From Tetradesmus obliquus (Eukaryota > Chlorophyta > Chlorophyceae > Sphaeropleales > Scenedesmaceae): 64,000 bases of DNA. Positions 20,992 through 29,114 of this stretch are shown here, piece after piece. The stretch lies in assembly GCA_030272155.1 (NCBI GenBank), contig CP126198.1:1116001-1180000 (forward strand). The letters are read 5' to 3'. The notes beneath the pieces are model-generated. The model searched no databases. It was not told where the DNA came from and worked only from the letters and a program-made list of their open reading frames with translations. Every line of letters begins with the position of its first letter. Within the stretch, counting starts at the first letter, position 1. The translations under genes and the position numbers were made by a program.

Positions 20992-23900
20992 TCACTCCGT
21001 CACAGTGATAACATATTCTGGGTACGCACTGCTGCTGTCGAAGATCACGAGGTATCTACCTTTGGAGCTGCTGCTGTCCTGCGGCTTGTCAAACACAGAG
21101 TCGAAGCCCTCTGGCGGCCGCCTCATGCCGTACTTGCCCTCGCACTGCCTCCCCAGCAGCACACGCGCCGCCAGCAGCGTCAGCGTCCCAACTGTTGCAG
21201 CTCCTTTTATGTTGCTATATACAACGGCAGTATAGCTGCAGTTTGAGAAGTACGTCCCTTGTCCGTAGACGCCAGCGCTGTTCAGGCGGCAGTCGAAACC
21301 GCCCTTGGTGATGGCTGCTGCTGCTGCTGCACTGGTGCCATGGAAGAGCTGCTGCTCGTTGATGCCTGCAGCAGATGGACAGCCCAACAACACATGAGAG
21401 TTTGGTTGCCGCAATGCACAAGGCAATTGTTGTGTGGGCCCAGCAAACATTCAGCAAAAGCACAAACAGAGGCTCATTGTAGTATATGTTGAGCTGTAAT
21501 GATGTATCATCCTCAGCAGAGCCATGCATGCGCAGTCACCCGGGTGGACGCGGCCCTGGCAGGAGCTGCAAAGGCAACACAGCCTGACGCTCACCTGCAG
21601 GGCCCAGTTCATCCTGCATCTCTTGCCGCCTGAGGCAGTAGCGCCTCCACAGCATAGGGTTCTGCACACGCACAACCCTCAGCACCTGCAGCAACGGCAC
21701 ACCAAACGCAGCTTGCACAAACTAGTCAAGTGAGAGTAACCGCCGGAGTTGCCAGCAGTGAAAGCACAAACAGCACCAGTGCATGCATGCTTACAAGCTA
21801 CCTGATGCGGCCTTGACAGCCTATCAAGCGCCCAGTATTTTGCACACAACAAGCGCTTGCTGTGTAACAGGGTGTGACGCGCTACCTAGCCCATCCGAAT
21901 GCAGCTCACATACGCACCCTAGACCTCTCCACACCGCTGCTCTGCAGCTGCTGCAGCAGCTCCTCCACTTCCAGCACCTCCGCAGGTGATGCAGGGCCCT
22001 GACTGCAACTCCTTGAAGCAGCGGCACTGCTGCTGCTGCTGCTGCTGGCAGCTGAAATGGATGAAGCATGCCCGGTCGCTCCCTGCAGAGATCGAGTCAC
22101 GCAGACAGGCCAGTGGCAGCAGGCAGGCTTCAGTTAAAAGATAACCTTCACCACACAGTAGTACTCAGCAGACACTATCCAGCCATTGCCTGGTGTCAGG
22201 CGTGCACCCGCCCAGGAAACACAACGAGCAAGTGATGAAGGTCCACCTCGCTCCCTGCTCCCTTTATGCCAAGTGATACACGATCTGCACATTGCTTCTC
22301 TGCATTTGCCAATCGTTGCTAGCACTAGCATGTGCACTGTCACAGCCACGTTTGCAAGGTGTTCACTGCTGACAGCCGACTGCAGCTTCATCTCACCCGT
22401 AACTGGCCATACGCCACCGCCCACACATTGGCAGGCCCACCGCTGCCAGCGCAGCATGCCACCTGCACATGCGCCGCCTCCAGGTCCCCGTCGCCCAGCA
22501 GCAGCGCAGCCAGTGCATCAGGCAGGCTAAGCCACAGCTGGCTCTGCAGTGACGCCACGTCACTAGCCTTCACCTGCTGCTGCACTGCTGCTGCCTCGAG
22601 CGATGACACATGCAGGGGGTCGGCTGGCTGCCAGAGGGTCGAGCCTGTTGAATGCCGCTGTGTGATGCTGCTTGGCAGGGCCAGCTCCTTCAAGTGCAGC
22701 CCTGCACACATTCAACACAACAAAAGGGGTGCTGAGCACCAGCTTGCTGTTCTGGCGTGACGCATCCTTTGCAGCCGCTGTGCAGGTGCTGCATTTTCAG
22801 ACAATGTGATGTGGTCTGCAGCAGCGCACTGGCTATTGCAGATTTTACAATGACTACCATGCACGTACCATTGTTGGATGTGGGCTCCCAAGATGATGGC
22901 AGGTCGAAGTTCAGATATGTTGACAGAGGCATGCTGCTGCTGCCTTGGGCTGGCATTGAGGCTGGGGCGGGGCCCCTACTAGTAGCACCCTGTGCTACAG
23001 CTGTGGGAGCTTCTGGTGCCGTTCCTGCTGCTGCTGTTGCTGTTGCCACAGCTGGCGCTGCCACTGCTACTGGTGCTGGTGCTAATGCAAGTGAAGGCTC
23101 TGGGACTGACGACGCTGCACCAACACCAGGTCCTTGCTTCAAGCCCGATTGGTAGTGTTGGTAGCGCAGCTCTTCTGTGGAGAGGTGCTGGCACAAGCTG
23201 CTGGCTGTGATTGTCGAAGGCACATCTGTGGTGCTGTCAAAGGGTCCTGCTACAGCAGCAGCAGCAGCAGGCGGTGACAGCGACGCGAGTGCTGCACTGC
23301 CAGTGCTTGTTGTGATGCCTGCCTGGAAGGGTCCTGTTGGAGCAGCAGCAGGCGGTGACAGCGGCATGACCACTGCACTGCCAGTGCTTGCTTTGACGCC
23401 TGCCTGGTAGTCGCCAAAGCGAAGCTCCTCTGTAGATGTGCTTTGGTAGGCAGTCATGGCTGTGATTGTCTGCATATAAAAAACGAGTTGTGCGGGCATA
23501 TGAAGCTCCAGGTGAAGCTTCAATTTCAACAGGTGCCTGAAAGGGCGGCCTGCCTGCGTAGTCCAGCTTGTGTGAACCAGCATCAAACCTTGGCTGTGCA
23601 GCGCCAGGCGCCGGCGGCACCAATGCAGCAGCTGCGCCCCTGCCGCTGAGCCCCGCAGATGGCATGCCAAAGCTGAAACCGGCGCTGCCGGCGCTGCCAA
23701 ATGCAGCTGTAGCAGCGGGTAGAGCACCAAAGCTGGATCCAGCTCCTGTTCCAGCGCTGCTGGCGCTGCGATGTGTAGCAGCGGGTAGAGCACCAAAGCC
23801 GAATCCAGCTCCTGTTCCAGCGCTGCTGGCGCTGCCATGTGTAGCTGTAGCAGCGGGTAGAGCACCAAAGCTGGATCCAGCCTTGGTGCCAGCGCTGCTG

Positions 23901-26900
23901 GCGCTGCCATGTGCTGCAGCGGGTACAGCACCAAAGCCGAACCCAGCCTTGGTGCCAGCGCTGCTGACGCTGCCATGCGCTGCAGCGGGTAGGGCACCAA
24001 AGCCGAATCCAGCGCCTGTGCCAGCGCTGCTGGCGCTGCCATGCGCTGCAGCGGGTAGAGCACCAAAGCCGAATCCAGCGCCTGTGCCAGCGCTGCTGGC
24101 GCTGCCAGATGCAGCTGCAGCAGCGGTCTGCACGCCAAAGAAACCACCTCCTGTGCCAGCACTGTTGGAATTTTCATCATGAACAGGTGCCGGGAAAGGT
24201 GGCCTGCCTGCATGGTCCGCTCTTAATGCACCAGCATCAAACCTTGACTGTGCAGCAGCAGGCGCTGGCAGCGTTGGTGCAGCTGCAATCCCGCCGCTGA
24301 AACCTGCCTCATAGTCTGCCCAGCGCAGCTCCTCTGCTGACATGTGCTGGTAGGCGCCCATGGCTGTTATGCTGCACATGAATACTTGACATGGACCTGT
24401 GCTGATTGAAGATGTGTCAATGGTATGGGTTAGTTGGTAGCTGGCGGCCCGGCTACCAAGCGCCTGCAGCACAAGAGGAGAACACCATGTTATCACCACC
24501 ATCATGCCGTCACGATCAGCAATGCATGTCCCACAGCTCACGTGTCCTCTGCATGTTTGAGATCCAGTGGCTGTGCAGACCAGAAAACATTGCTCAGCAT
24601 TTACAGCGTCCGTCGCCATGCATGCTGCTGCTGTTGCTGCTAATGATGATGCAACTCAAGGGTACAAAACAACCACACACCTGCTGCTGCTGTGTAGATG
24701 TTGTCTGACCAAAGGCTTCTAACCCGGTGGTGCCTGCAGATGCTGCGCTGCCTGCTGCCAAGGCCGCCAGTCCTGGGGAAGTGGGTTGCTGGTGCTGAGA
24801 GGCTCCTTGTATGCTGATGCCAGGGCTAAGAGTGCTGCCAGGACCACCTGAGGTGCTGAACATCATGCCTGGGCTGTTAGGGCACGATAATGCCATGGGA
24901 GACACAGCTGCCACCACAACAGGCAGGCTGTGCAAGGGGCTTCCTACTGCCATCCCTTGCTGGAAGACAGCAGCAAGCTGTTCCAGTGGAATAACAACAC
25001 ATGGAGAGCCATTGAAGCTGCAGTTTGCCACTTCTGGTGCACCACGTACTGGTGAAGCAAATGGTGAACGTGGAAAGCTGCCAGCTGGCACAGCACCTGG
25101 AGAGCTGGGTGCTGCTGCAATGCTGCCAAAGCCACTATAGTTGTTGGTGGTGGGTTGTCCTGATGTGATGTTTGTGGGGCTGAAGGGGTTTGGTTGGCTG
25201 CCAAACTGGCTGCTGTTGGCTGGCGCAGCACCTGGGGAGCTGGGTGCTGCTGCAATGCTGCCAAAGCCACTAAAACTGTTAGCGCTTGGTTGTCCAGACA
25301 TGCTGCTGGTGGGGCCAAAGGGGCTTAGGTGGCTGCCAAACTGGCAGCTGCTGGCGGGCGCTGCACTTGGAGAGCTAGGTGTGCCTGCAAAGCTGCTGAA
25401 GCCACCAGGCTGGTTGGCTGCATGCTGTCCAAAAGTGGTGTTTCCTGAGCCAAAGGGGCTTGGTTGGCTGCCAAAAGGGCCGCTGCTGCTGCTGCTGCCA
25501 CCATGCGCACCACAGGATTTGGAGTGGGCGCCAAAGAACCCAGCAAGGTCAGGGCTTGGCGCGGCGGAGGCACCGCTGCCGCTTGCAGCTGGAGGAACGC
25601 CAAAGCTGAAGCTGCCAGGACTGGCAAAAAACCCAAAATTGCTGCTGCCAGCAATGAAGCCGCTGCTGCTGGTGTGGGCAGTTGGTGTGCCAAACTTGAA
25701 GCTACCAGCTCTGCCGTGACTTTCAAAGCTGCTGCAACTGCTCCCATTGACAGACTGCCCACCAAAGCTGAGGAACCCCCCAGTACCTCCTCCACTGCTG
25801 GTGCCGGCGTTGAAGCCGCTGCTGCTGGTGGTGGCGGCTGGTGTGCCAACTTGAAATCACCAGCTCTGCCGTGGCTATCAAACCTGCTGCTGTTGACGTT
25901 GACATGCTGCACACCAGAACTGAGGGCACCTGCAGTGCCACTGCCACTGCTGCTGCCGTTGCTGCCGAAGCGGCTGGCCCCTGCAGAGCCGGCAAGTGCA
26001 CCGTTGAAGCTGAAGACAGCTCCAGTGCCAGAGGTGAAGACACCTCCGGTGCTGCTGGTGCTGCCAAAAGCAGGTGCAGCACCAGGTAGCACACCACAGC
26101 TGGAGCCAGCTCCTGTGCCAGTGCTAGCGCTGCTAGTGCAGCCAAATAATTGCAGGCCAAAGCCAAAGCCAGCTCCTGTGCCAGCGCCGCTGGTGCTGCC
26201 GATTATAGCTGTAGCAGTGGCCGGCGCACCAAAGCTGAAGCTTGCTGCACTTGTGGTGGCAGAGGGTACAGTGCTTGAGATGGGAGCACTAACAGTACCA
26301 TTGGCAGCAGGATGGTGTACGCTGGAACCCGGGCTGCTGTGTTGGCTGCCAGGGAATGGGCTGCTGCTGGCAGCATCAGTGGACGCATTGCCACCAAAGC
26401 TAGCTGGCTGTGCCACTGGTGCTGGGCTGTCATCCTCTGAGTCTGTGACTTGAACGCTGAATATGCTGAAGCTTGCTGCTGCTACACCTAGTTGTGGTGT
26501 GCTGCCTCCAGGTGTGCTGCCACCAGGCACATCAAACACAAAGCTTCTCTTTCTTCTGCTGCTGCCCGGAGTGCTACCAGGAGTGTGCGCGCTGCTTATG
26601 CCTGCCTGGGCAGTGGTTGACACACCAAACAAGCCTATTACAGGGCTTGGCTGCTTGCAGCTGCTGGCGCTGTTGAATGGGCCTTCAGCCTGTGGCCAGC
26701 TGCCAGCTTGGCCGCCAAAGGAGCTGAACCCTGTCCTGTCGGCAGGTGGTACACTGAAAGGAGAACTGCTCGTGCCTGCACTGCCGCTGGCGCTTGGGCC
26801 ACCGAAAGAAAGGCTGCCTGCGACTGCACTGCTGCCGCCGCTGTCGCTGGTGGGTGGGGCGCCAAAGGGGAAGCTAGCTGTGCCTGCAGCGCTGCCGCCG

Positions 26901-27400
26901 GTAGGCGGAGCGCCGAAGGTGGAGCTGCTTGCTGCTGCGCTGCTGCCATCGCTGCCGCTGGTAGGTGGGAGGCCTAAAGGGAAGCTTCTTGCTGCTGCAC
27001 TGTTGCTGCTGCTGCCGCTGAGAAGCGAGGCGTCAAACGCGAAGCTGCTGGCGGCTGCGCTGCTGCCGCCGCTGCCTCTGGTAGGTGGGCCGCCTTCAGC
27101 CGCTGCCACGCCTGTGGTGACGTTGTCGCTAGGATTCAAGCCCACAGGCGCAGACGCAAGCGTGCTGCCCATGGCGCTGATTGAGCCAAAAGCTATGTAA
27201 GTAGCTGCTTGCTGCTGCTGTCGTTCCCTCATGCTAACCAACCGCCTTGCCTTAGCCAACGCCGGGGCAGTGCTGCGGTTTCCAGGTGTGCCAGGGTGGC
27301 CCCAGCCTTTGGCCTTGTGGTTTCTCAGTGTGCGGTCAAACGCTGCCCTTGCCTCGCCGCTGCTGTAGCCGTATGTGGGGCTTCCAAGGTCAAACTCCAC
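20992..27400 (-). CDS. NUP98-like FG/GLEBS protein joined to a C-terminal PARP catalytic domain
   Basis: Exons: 27400-24681, 24463 to about 23510, 23469-22869, 22701-22397, 22082-21918, 21685-21595 and 21365-20992; roughly 1,700 residues. Phases close at every junction from 23469 on, and the first exon closes if one missing base near 25850 is allowed for. The N-terminal 900 residues are Ser/Gly/Ala-rich with dozens of FG dipeptides (SFSFGAP, SGFGS). Then come GSRAASYQLTHTIDTSS and AEELRWADYEAG, closely like the Gle2/RAE1-binding GLEBS segment of NUP98, then FG repeats, then two more GLEBS-like motifs (TEELRFGDYQAG and TEELRYQHYQSG). The C-terminal part reads LPSSWEPTSNNG, VLRVVRVQNPMLWRRY, NEQQLFHGT (His), YGQGTYFS (Tyr) and YPEYVITV (Glu), an intact H-Y-E ADP-ribosyltransferase triad. 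No NUP98 autoproteolytic domain is seen. Location at the nuclear pore and ADP-ribosylation there are inferences. The 23,510/23,469 junction is uncertain. Confidence 0.75.
23660..24120. repeat. In-frame 66-72 bp FG repeats inside the FG/PARP gene
   Basis: About seven units on the minus strand read roughly GSASSAGTGAGFGFGALPA, each carrying GFGFG or GSSFG. Small length differences (AAA versus AATAT) are multiples of three, so the frame is kept. This is coding repetition, unlike the intronic arrays elsewhere in the window. Confidence 0.9.
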
Positions 27401-27707
27401 ACGAAGCGGGCCTGTGCGCCTGCAGCATGTTCAGCACGTGACCGTGTAAGCCAAGAGCGAGCACTTGGTGTGAGCTAAGAGTGAGCCAGATGCCAGCAGG
27501 AACAGGCAATACACGATGTATTACAGGCTGCACTGTCCTGCAGACAGACACGGCCTGCAGGCCGTGTGGCCATCAGCCAACACGTCCAGTGCACACGAGC
27601 ACCGTTTCCTGTAAGCAGCACTGCCCTGCAGGTGGCACCTGACACGCCTTCAGCAGCATGATTGAGATGGCATGGCTGCGTTCCTGCAAGCTGGCCTGCT
27701 GTGCTGC
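27401..27707. other. Short gap between the FG/PARP start and the UBE2Q-like end
   Basis: This holds the presumed FG/PARP promoter. The last residues of the E2 gene end on GGCGG|GTGAGC, which is a possible donor, so a further 3' exon of that gene could lie here, for example after TTGCAG near 27690. I cannot decide. Confidence 0.35.
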
Positions 27708-29114
27708 TCACCCGCCAGGCCCAGTTGGAGTCTCAATGTCCATCACTTCAGCATGCAGCATGTTGTTGACAATGACGTGTAATATGCTGCCCACGCAGAA
27801 GCTGGGCTGCCAGCAGCCTGGGCTGCCGCTGTTGGTCAGGGACTCGAGGCAGATGGAGCCGCCCGCTGTCACATGGCCGGTGTACATGACACACCTGCGG
27901 CACGCACGTGTCAGCAAGCAGGAGAGTGCAGGGTCATGTTGGGGATGTGCTCACAGCGGCAGGGCACACTGTACACAACAATCTTTCCAGTGTTGATGGG
28001 GTCAAGGCTTGCAGGACTTGCAGGAATTGCCTTGCACACCTGGGCTTGACAACACGGGCGAAGAAGGGCCTGGTGGGGTAGTCGTCAGGGAACTCCAGCT
28101 CCAGCAGCAGGTGGTCGAGGCCATGCCTGAGGAGCACAGCCGCAGCAACAAACCAGCAGCACAGCATTGGTCCAGTCAGACATGCATGTGTACCCAACCA
28201 CTGTGGTTTAAACCACAAATTTGTGGCAGTTGTAGCAGTTGACATCATACAATAGGCTGTGCACGAGGGTGTGAGCTGTTTGAGGGCATTTTTTTGCGTG
28301 GGTATTGTCCTGCAAGCTGCATCCTGCAAGCACCTCAGTCTGTGAGCACATCGCCTGCTGTGCACCATGCAGCTACACTATGACAAAGTCAACTCCTAAA
28401 TTTGCGGCATACTTTCCTAGGAAAAAAAGCAACTCGCTGACATCCTGCCTGGCCCACTGGTGGTGCTCTTTAGTACCGAATACTTGCAGGAGGCACTCAC
28501 AATTGCCCCAGCTTGCGCAGGTCTTCATTCAACTGCCTGCCACCCTCTGTGCCATCATCAAAGTTGCACAACTCCAGGCGCCACGCATGCAGCCTGTCAT
28601 CCACAGTTGTCACGCTCCTGACAAAAGGGTAGCAGCTTGGCAGGTCCTTGCACAGCTGCCTGAGCTCTGCCTGTATGCGCTTGGCGCCATGCAAGCGGCT
28701 CCAGGGTGCTGCTGCTTGCTCTGCATGGCAACTGCTGCTGGAAAGACTGCTGCCCTTGGACGTGCTTGGCGATGGTACAGTAGTGCCATTGTTGTCAGCT
28801 TCAGGCTGCGTATTACCGTCAGCACCAGGGCTGGCCTGTAAGGACAAAGCAAGCAGTTGAGCAGAGTAGCAGACAGCACGTATCAGATACAGCAGCTGTA
28901 GCAATGGTAGTTATGGTGTGCATGCCATCCACTGCACAGCGCAATGCTGCGAGGCAGCACCACATATTGAGCAGCAGCTCAACGTAGCATGAACATCGGC
29001 CAAGTTGTCGCTAAGCTTGCCAGTTGTACGCCACTGCTTGCCATCTGAAGCCAGCTGCTTGCTATTCCAGCTCAAGCTCACCCTTTGCTGCTGACGGCAT
29101 TCCACTGCACTCAT
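27708..29114 (-). CDS. UBE2Q-like ubiquitin-conjugating enzyme (E2)
   Basis: Exons: 29114-29082 (MSAVECRQQQR), 28835-28501, 28126-28040 and 27894-27708; phases close. After a Ser-rich leader the UBC fold starts at RLHGAKRIQAELRQLCKDLP and runs on through HAWRLELCNFD, HLLLELEFPDDYPTRPFF, ARVVKPRC, GHVTAGGSICLESLTNSG and a GCWQPSFCVGSILHVIVNNM helix. The Cys in GGSICLESL sits where UBE2Q enzymes have GGALCMELLT, the thioester cysteine. Ubiquitin transfer is the family role; partners are unknown. The first exon is short and chosen for its ATG, clean GTGAGC donor and matching phase, so it is the least certain part. The stop at 27708 may hide another donor. Confidence 0.75.

What the first reader, a model, noticed from the sequence alone, without database searches (positions are those of the whole stretch)
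20992..27400. NUP98-like FG/GLEBS region fused to a PARP catalytic domain
From 23469 to 20992 six exons join with matching phase at every junction, linking GLEBS-like motifs and FG repeats to a PARP domain with His (LFHGT), Tyr (GTYFS) and Glu (YPEYV). I know of no such fusion. In mammals PARP11 is reported to act at the nuclear envelope with NUP98, so a covalent link would be an independent route to the same pairing.
Basis: partly seen in the sequence, partly recalled or inferred. Interest (0 to 1): 0.93.

Follow-up and report, generated by a model that had tools for sequence, protein, structure and literature searches.

The report
Ubiquitin-E2/PARP enzyme with nuclear-pore insert
A green alga carries a gene that appears to join a ubiquitin-conjugating enzyme domain and an ADP-ribosylating enzyme domain into one protein with nuclear-pore-like repeats and docking motifs between them, hinting at a protein-tagging enzyme built to work at the nuclear pore.

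Summary
The core observation is real, but the gene is larger and differently built than described. Pfam confirms a PARP domain and NUP98 GLEBS motifs on the minus strand. The GLEBS2/GLEBS3 exon joins the PARP exons in one open frame (five exons, not six). The gene begins near 29114, 1.7 kb beyond the finding's end, with a UBE2Q-type ubiquitin E2 domain that reads directly into the FG repeats.

E2 + linker + UBA-like + PARP is a known chlorophyte architecture (a C. reinhardtii case is in print). This Tetradesmus obliquus genome has two ordinary copies on another contig. The window gene is their paralogue: both halves give the same tree placement, and five introns are shared in position and phase. 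Its linker carries 40 FG dipeptides and three GLEBS-like motifs. A Scenedesmus protein also joins GLEBS2 and GLEBS3 to PARP, with both motifs conserved.

The triad reads H-Y-Y, predicting a mono-ADP-ribosyltransferase. Caveats: two frame breaks (assembly error, intron or decay unresolved), conflicting public gene models, no RNA data. I propose an FG/Rae1-tethered ubiquitin/ADP-ribose writer: architecture well supported, function inferred.

The parts
29082..29114 (-). proposed first exon (ATG, 11 codons); least certain part of the model
   Evidence: in frame with exon 28835-28501, GT donor; public model P0004 instead splices the upstream gene into 28835
28501..28835 (-). exon, N-terminal part of UBE2Q-like E2 domain
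   Evidence: phmmer to UBE2Q2 1zuo 2.3e-13 and UBE2Q1 2qgx 6.5e-13 across joined exons; intron after it shared with C10 paralogue, phase 2
28040..28126 (-). exon, E2 core (LEFPDDYPTRPFFARVVKP)
   Evidence: following intron shared with C10 paralogue, phase 2
27712..27894 (-). exon with E2 active-site segment GGSICLE (Cys codon 27851-27849)
   Evidence: aligned to GGAICME/GGALCME of UBE2Q1/2; conserved in the chlorophyte rows that hold the E2
25850..27419 (-). long exon: end of E2 domain running in the same frame into FG repeats (13 FG)
25830..25870 (-). first frame break: AAGTTGG here versus AAGTTTGG in the next repeat copy
24681..25858 (-). FG-repeat exon after the break (part of 27 FG)
   Evidence: donor GTGTGT
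23470..24463 (-). exon with GLEBS1 (24311-24376), RFDAG..GRPPF modules and 22-residue FG repeats
   Evidence: GLEBS 27.2 bits in genome scan, 23.2 bits by hmmscan; repeat copies differ mostly at third codon positions in this frame
23455..23500 (-). second frame break: either an intron ending at 23470 or an indel by a T6 run inside the GLEBS2 hairpin
22869..23469 (-). exon with GLEBS2 (23407-23472 by the scan), GLEBS3 (about 23131-23211) and, at its end, the SSWEP motif of the UBC-PARP family
   Evidence: following intron shared with C10 paralogue, phase 1
22397..22701 (-). exon with UBA-like segment (SLPDALAALLLGDGDLEAAHVQVACC)
   Evidence: colinear with the same place in relatives, of which P0015, P0016 and P0019 score over the Pfam UBA cut-off, and a three-helix bundle in the P0006 model; Pfam does not recognise UBA in the window exon itself
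21918..22082 (-). exon, helix before the PARP domain; ends RSR
   Evidence: following intron shared with C10 paralogue, phase 0
21595..21685 (-). exon, first PARP strand and helix (VLRVVRVQNPMLWRRY)
   Evidence: following intron shared with C10 paralogue, phase 1
20992..21365 (-). last exon: PARP catalytic core, LFHGT, GTYFS and Tyr at the third triad position, stop codon
   Evidence: PF00644 53.1 bits; PARP12 4.9e-20; tankyrase alignment

Best explanation
This is one gene (about 29114-20992, minus strand) of Tetradesmus obliquus encoding a multidomain enzyme: UBE2Q-type ubiquitin E2, then a long FG-repeat stretch with three GLEBS-like Rae1/Gle2-docking motifs, then a UBA-like segment, then a PARP-type mono-ADP-ribosyltransferase with an H-Y-Y triad. 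It arose by duplication of an ordinary chlorophyte E2-UBA-PARP gene whose disordered linker then gained NUP98-like FG and GLEBS sequence. Shown by sequence: the domains, the paralogy, and conservation of GLEBS2/3 together with PARP in a second genus. Inferred: the FG repeats partition the enzyme into the FG phase of nuclear pores or bind transport receptors, the GLEBS motifs dock Rae1/Gle2, and the two catalytic ends ADP-ribosylate and ubiquitinate nucleoporins or mRNA-export factors there.
For: Domains: PF00644 and PF21240 over cut-off. UBE2Q match 2.3e-13 across the joined exons; Pfam UQ_con 26.2 bits, just below its cut-off of 27. One gene: E2 and FG share the ORF 27419-25850. The GLEBS2/3 exon ends in the SWEP motif of the UBC-PARP family. 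P0003 of Scenedesmus sp. has GLEBS2, GLEBS3, UBA-like and PARP in one model. GLEBS2 is identical at 16 of 24 aligned and GLEBS3 at 17 of 27, like PARP at 81 of 127, while the stretches around them mostly fail to align (spacer 27 of 58 residues aligned, 9 identical; linker 21 of 72 aligned, 7 identical). The E2 tree (15 rows) and the UBA-PARP tree (14 rows) both place the window beside P0010 and P0005, 100/99. Five introns have the same position and phase as in C10 paralogue copy 1, the C10 junctions read by eye from the printed sequence. FG excess 40 versus 13.6 +/- 3.3, against 0-2 FG in 16 other family rows, 4 of which hold no PARP in their models. In six copies of the 22-residue repeat, pairwise changes by codon position are 26/21/47, with 39 of 78 codon changes synonymous against 4 of 55 and 11 of 61 in the other frames; a second repeat family is much less clear, 20/16/22 with 12 of 40 synonymous. 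Triad Tyr aligned to tankyrase Glu. Parallel: PARP11 targets NXF1 and NUP98 (passage of PMC7827148).
Against: Two frame breaks, at about 25850 and 23470. The public model of this locus (P0004) skips most of the FG region, stops before GLEBS2 and leaves PARP outside; the public model of the OEZ85 relative (P0002) starts after the GLEBS motifs. Neither relative has an intact PARP in its model: P0002 ends in what resembles the window's alternative frame, P0003 lacks the Tyr-motif segment. P0003's GLEBS is 25.5 bits, below cut-off. I never searched proteins with the FG region or GLEBS1 as the scored part, so whether they exist outside this genome is untested. GLEBS matches to solved NUP98 are weak (0.0012 and 0.017). 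Some introns are not shared with C10. No RNA, localisation, binding or activity data. Rae1 was not searched for in this genome.
Confidence: 0.6

Rival explanations
1. The locus is a decaying paralogue: the ordinary C10 copies do the work, and the window gene is losing its frame, so the FG/GLEBS-PARP link is a relic.
For: Two frame breaks in the window; P0002 C-terminus resembles the window's alternative frame; P0003 lacks the PARP Tyr-motif segment; long end branch of the window E2, 1.13; two C10 paralogues present.
Against: GLEBS2, GLEBS3 and PARP are conserved between genera while spacers are not; H and Y of the triad and the E2 active-site segment are intact, and the introns used in the two joined parts have GT-AG ends; third-position bias in one repeat family; both breaks lie by runs of T, as expected of read errors.
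Confidence: 0.22
2. Two separate genes: an E2-FG-GLEBS1 gene ending near 23.6-23.2 kb and a PARP gene starting near 22.9 kb.
For: Public models split here: P0004 ends before GLEBS2, P0002 starts at a Met that corresponds to a place inside exon 23469-22869.
Against: GLEBS2/3 are in the same open exon as the SWEP motif; P0003 has GLEBS2/3 with PARP; relatives and the C10 copies join E2 to PARP; concordant trees. P0004 is itself chimeric: it fuses the upstream histidine-phosphatase gene to the E2.
Confidence: 0.1
3. Integrated decoy: the GLEBS motifs bait pathogen proteins that attack the Rae1-NUP98 site, and the E2/PARP ends act as an immune effector rather than as a pore enzyme.
For: Several mammalian mono-ARTs act in antiviral responses (passages of PMC4245714 and PMC9189837); viral attack on the Rae1-NUP98 site is recalled, not tested here; three GLEBS-like copies beside a normal NUP98.
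Against: 40 FG repeats are not needed for a decoy; no evidence on infection or binding.
Confidence: 0.1

Closest known systems
Chlorophyte UBC-PARP proteins (C. reinhardtii P0012, Gonium P0008, Chlorella P0015/P0016, T. obliquus OEZ85_003974 P0010; PARP with UBCc in Perina et al. 2014, PMC4245714)
   Same: N-terminal UBE2Q-like E2, C-terminal PARP, UBA-like segment, SWEP/HWEP motif; five introns shared with the C10 paralogue
   Different: 0-2 FG in 16 rows and no GLEBS by Pfam in 0 of 15 scanned rows, P0005-P0009 and P0010-P0019
NUP98 (canonical gene on contig C17 of this genome)
   Same: FG repeats and GLEBS of the ITAM-Y-S-EELR-DY type
   Different: Window gene shows no autoproteolytic domain PF04096 (genome-scan hits only on C17; none in the window ORFs scanned), has one GLFG in the joined reading, and carries E2 and PARP instead
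Human PARP12/PARP14/PARP15 mono-ARTs
   Same: Best solved relatives of the PARP domain (4.9e-20); PARP12 and PARP15 show the YPEY motif in the alignments seen; no Glu at their third triad position (recalled)
   Different: Human proteins carry zinc-finger, WWE or macro domains (passages of PMC4245714), not E2, FG or GLEBS
Human PARP11
   Same: Mono-ART reported to modify NUP98 and to localise at the nuclear envelope (passages)
   Different: The link to NUP98 is enzyme-substrate, not covalent fusion
Fungal clade 6A PARP-UBCc proteins (Citarelli et al. 2010, PMC2964712)
   Same: PARP and UBCc in one protein
   Different: Order PARP then UBCc; no FG/GLEBS described in the passages seen

Membership tests
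Chlorophyte UBC-PARP | UBE2Q-like E2 domain with active-site Cys at the N-terminus | tested here: met
   1zuo 2.3e-13, GGSICLE; Pfam UQ_con 26.2 bits, just under its cut-off of 27, as in most relatives
Chlorophyte UBC-PARP | PARP domain at the C-terminus | tested here: met
   PF00644 53.1 bits
Chlorophyte UBC-PARP | UBA-like segment between linker and PARP | tested here: inconclusive
   colinear alignment but no Pfam UBA hit in the window exon
Chlorophyte UBC-PARP | common descent of both halves | tested here: met
   E2 and UBA-PARP trees agree, 100/99; five shared introns
NUP98 | GLEBS motif | tested here: met
   29.3 and 27.2 bits over cut-off; third copy by eye and by its conservation in P0003
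NUP98 | FG repeats above chance | tested here: met
   40 versus 13.6 +/- 3.3
NUP98 | autoproteolytic domain (Nucleoporin2, PF04096) | tested here: not met
   own-genome hits only on C17 (3 matches, 1 over cut-off); none in the 7 window ORFs scanned
Poly-ADP-ribose polymerase (H-Y-E) | Glu at third triad position | tested here: not met
   tankyrase Glu aligns with window Tyr
Mono-ADP-ribosyltransferase (H-Y-Phi; Phi = Ile, Leu or Tyr) | His and Tyr kept, hydrophobic residue or Tyr at third position | tested here: met
   rule from passages of PMC9189837
Mono-ADP-ribosyltransferase (H-Y-Phi; Phi = Ile, Leu or Tyr) | NAD-dependent mono-ADP-ribosylation | not testable with these tools
   needs purified protein

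The most novel reading that the evidence does not exclude
Scenedesmaceae built a covalent nuclear-pore modifying enzyme: NUP98-type FG and GLEBS modules inserted between a ubiquitin E2 and a mono-ADP-ribosyltransferase, so that one polypeptide docks at the pore and Rae1 and writes both marks there. That would be an independent, hard-wired version of the PARP11-NUP98 pairing. I know of no other enzyme carrying both FG repeats and GLEBS; three narrow paper searches found none.
Probability: 0.4. Interest if true: 0.87.

Novelty: new variant of a known kind. Interest (0 to 1): 0.7.

Why it matters
I know of no catalytic domain fused to NUP98-type FG/GLEBS sequence, and three narrow searches of an open-licence paper library returned nothing. 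If expressed, the protein would be a natural, genetically accessible test of how ADP-ribosylation and ubiquitination act on nuclear pores and mRNA export, and of whether NUP98-PARP pairing evolved twice. It also shows a UBC-PARP linker acquiring NUP98-like modules after duplication, with two unmodified paralogues in the same genome as a control.

Tried and rejected
Rejected: that the gene is NUP98 itself (canonical NUP98 on C17). Rejected: an H-Y-E triad. Rejected: that the C14 GLEBS-like locus is a paralogue; its motifs score 21.7 and 19.2 bits in the genome scan and 18.1 and 15.7 by hmmscan, all below the cut-off of 27, and Pfam shows no E2 or PARP in the two ORF stretches scanned. Led nowhere: NCBIfam gave no hits for the 3 relatives tried; tRNA scan of the window empty; paper searches for the fusion returned none; a search for a Tetradesmus genome paper did not help. 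I considered an intron for the second frame break: seven phase-0 donors exist for the acceptor at 23470, none decisive. The AlphaFold job was run on the relative P0006, not on the window's spliced protein, mean pLDDT 57.9; Foldseek then matched UBE2Q and PARP12. Limits of searches: searches scored only the roughly 7990 candidates sharing most words; the own-genome PARP scan reports one match and missed the two intron-rich C10 copies that and one search then showed, so exon-wise absence is weak evidence. Rows dropped: P0009 (E2 piece fused to an ABC1 kinase model) from the trees and the FG count; P0004, P0015 and P0021 from both trees; P0002 and P0003 from the E2 tree (no E2 in their models); P0007, P0018 and P0020 from the UBA-PARP tree; P0022 and P0023 were never fetched; P0024-P0028 (tankyrases) used only as aligned controls. 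Bryopsis has a long branch (2.0) in the UBA-PARP tree.
Full report
What the locus is. The window lies in a 104.7 Mb, 17-contig genome (contig C8). The public protein P0004, whose contig length (5918163) equals that of C8, names it Tetradesmus obliquus (OEZ86_014139) and is 100% identical over the E2 region searched. The finding's two claims, a PARP domain and NUP98-like GLEBS and FG sequence, both hold. PF00644 scores 53.1 bits against a cut-off of 26.7. PF21240 (Nup98_GLEBS) is over its cut-off for two copies at this locus in the genome scan, 29.3 and 27.2 bits; hmmscan of the ORFs gives 28.2 and 23.2. A third, more degenerate copy (TITASSLCQHLSTEELRYQHYQSGLK, about 23211-23131) is recognised by eye and by its conservation in a relative. 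The GLEBS copies align with NUP98 GLEBS peptides in solved structures such as 3mmy, at E 0.0012 for GLEBS2 and 0.017 for GLEBS1.

The gene is longer than described. From 23469 to 20992 I find five exons, not six; they join in one open frame of 511 codons. Upstream, exons 29114-29082, 28835-28501, 28126-28040 and 27894-27712 and the long exon 27419-25850 also join in one frame. They encode a ubiquitin E2 domain of the UBE2Q type, best solved matches UBE2Q2 (1zuo, 2.3e-13) and UBE2Q1 (2qgx, 6.5e-13), with the active-site segment GGSICLE. Pfam's general UQ_con model scores 26.2 bits, just under its cut-off of 27. The E2 reads straight into the FG repeats within one exon. The joined reading has 41 FG dipeptides (13, 27 and 1 in the three parts). 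In residues 263-1470, 40 are found against 13.6 +/- 3.3 in shuffles, maximum 25 of 2000.

It belongs to a known kind, the chlorophyte UBC-PARP. Protein searches found proteins with an E2 and a PARP in Gonium, C. reinhardtii, Myrmecia, Bryopsis, Chlamydomonas sp. UWO 241, Chlorella, Micractinium and an MMETSP sample, and another T. obliquus protein (P0010). Of the 10 proteins scanned, Pfam detects PARP over cut-off in 9 (P0018 is E2 only), UQ_con over cut-off in 1 (P0010) with the others below it (12.8-26.5 bits), and UBA over cut-off in 3 (P0015, P0016, P0019). Perina et al. 2014 (PMC4245714, passages seen) already report a C. reinhardtii PARP with a UBCc domain; Citarelli et al. 2010 (PMC2964712, passages seen) describe fungal PARP-UBCc proteins. 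An AlphaFold model of P0006, a relative and not the window's protein, shows a confident E2 core, a low-confidence linker (residues 222-457 under pLDDT 50), a confident three-helix bundle in the UBA-like place and a partly confident PARP; Foldseek matches it to UBE2Q and PARP12.

Evidence that the window is one gene. The GLEBS2/GLEBS3 exon ends with LPSSWEPTSNN, colinear with PPHWEP of Gonium and RHWEP of P0006, just before the UBA-like segment. The same genome has two ordinary copies in tandem on C10, found exon by exon. Comparing the window with C10 copy 1, five introns agree in position and phase, the C10 junctions read by eye from the sequence printed: GQL|HGLDH (phase 2), KPR|CVMYTG (2), SWEPTSNN|LHLKEL against NWDYSQPIQRD|FRLVEL (1), RSR|VLRVV (0) and GPA|INEQ (1). 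Not shared: the window intron after TGPGG, and the C10 introns after NM and GTSP and near LYF; the window intron after AYGQLR was not matched to one in C10. Two of the shared introns lie in the E2 half and three in the PARP half. The E2 tree (15 rows) groups window, P0010 and P0005 with 100/99 support; the UBA-PARP tree (14 rows) groups window, P0002 and P0003 (100/100) beside P0010 and P0005 (100/99). Both halves therefore descend together from a duplicated UBC-PARP gene. Scenedesmus sp. NREL 46B-D3 has GLEBS2, GLEBS3, the UBA-like segment and PARP in one annotated protein (P0003); its GLEBS scores 25.5 bits, below the cut-off of 27, the model starting inside GLEBS2. GLEBS2 (16 identical of 24 aligned) and GLEBS3 (17 of 27) are conserved about as well as PARP (81 of 127), whereas the stretches around them mostly fail to align (27 of 58 and 21 of 72 residues aligned, with 9 and 7 identical).

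What is new is the linker. Sixteen other family rows (P0005-P0008, P0010-P0021; four of them without PARP in their models) have 0-2 FG, near their shuffled expectation, and none of their EEL[RK] matches is of the GLEBS type. Pfam finds GLEBS in 0 of 15 rows scanned, P0005-P0009 and P0010-P0019, at E up to 0.1. The four long ORFs of the C10 copies have 0-1 FG each. The genome keeps a canonical NUP98 on C17, with FG exons, a GLEBS of 45 bits and the autoproteolytic domain, so the window gene is not NUP98. In six copies of the 22-residue FG repeat, pairwise changes by codon position are 26/21/47 in the proposed frame, with 39 of 78 codon changes synonymous, against 4 of 55 and 11 of 61 in the other frames; a second repeat family (three copies) is far less clear, 20/16/22 with 12 of 40 synonymous. 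The repeat pairs are not independent, but the first family favours translation.

Catalytic prediction. In an alignment with five tankyrases, the tankyrase Glu of EYVIY stands opposite Tyr in the window's RYLVIF, while YPEY is shared by both. PARP12 and PARP15 also carry YPEY; that they are mono-ARTs with Ile and Leu in the triad is recalled. The passages of PMC9189837 seen give the rule: H-Y-E in poly-ARTs, H-Y-Phi with Phi = Ile, Leu or Tyr in mono-ARTs. The window triad is H-Y-Y, which predicts mono-ADP-ribosylation if the enzyme is active.

How it probably works. Inferred steps: FG repeats partition the enzyme into the pore's FG phase or bind transport receptors; GLEBS motifs dock Rae1/Gle2; the E2 and mono-ART ends modify nucleoporins or export factors. 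PARP11, which targets NUP98 and NXF1 and was found at the nuclear envelope (passages of PMC7827148 and PMC9189837), is the nearest functional precedent. None of these steps is shown here, and I did not look for Rae1 in this genome.

Against. The frame breaks twice: at about 25850 (AAGTTGG where the next repeat copy has AAGTTTGG) and at 23470, next to a run of six T or at an intron acceptor. The public model P0004 splices the upstream histidine phosphatase to the E2, skips most of the FG region and stops before GLEBS2; P0002 starts after the GLEBS motifs. P0002's C-terminus resembles the window's alternative frame, and P0003 lacks the PARP Tyr-motif segment, so neither relative proves an intact enzyme. 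Assembly error, intron and decay cannot be separated without reads or RNA. No protein search used the FG region or GLEBS1 as its scored part, so their presence in other species is untested.

Novelty. Three searches of the open-licence paper library returned no paper: Nup98 + PARP + fusion + green algae, nucleoporin + GLEBS + PARP domain, nucleoporin + PARP domain + FG repeat. These are narrow, and most subscription papers are not held. I rate it a new variant of a known kind, with high interest if the transcript is confirmed.

Noticed in passing
window about 31780-28835 (minus): The public model P0004 fuses an upstream histidine-phosphatase gene (PF00300, 138 bits) to the E2 exon, cutting the phosphatase off just before an exon that reads VSHGG in the sequence (read by eye); it looks like a chimeric annotation.
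   Followed up: partly
L011:1126-1185 and L011:1623-1685 (G000:C14:251126-251685): Two more weak GLEBS-like motifs (SISAMPAYSSSSHEELR) in Ala/Ser/Gln-rich ORFs, below the Pfam cut-off. The second ORF ends in a stretch that, from recall only, resembles a DUF3883-type nuclease region; Pfam gave no hit for it.
   Followed up: partly
L024 and L025 (G000:C10:4450001-4470000): Two tandem copies of the ordinary E2-UBA-PARP gene about 10 kb apart, with repeated exon-like pieces inside copy 1.
   Followed up: partly
P0002 (T. obliquus OEZ85_013877), C-terminus: Its last residues resemble the window's alternative reading frame, so that relative's model loses the last PARP strand; sequencing error or decay is unresolved.
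   Followed up: no
window about 32430-32380: A (GAT)n microsatellite upstream of the histidine-phosphatase gene.
   Followed up: no
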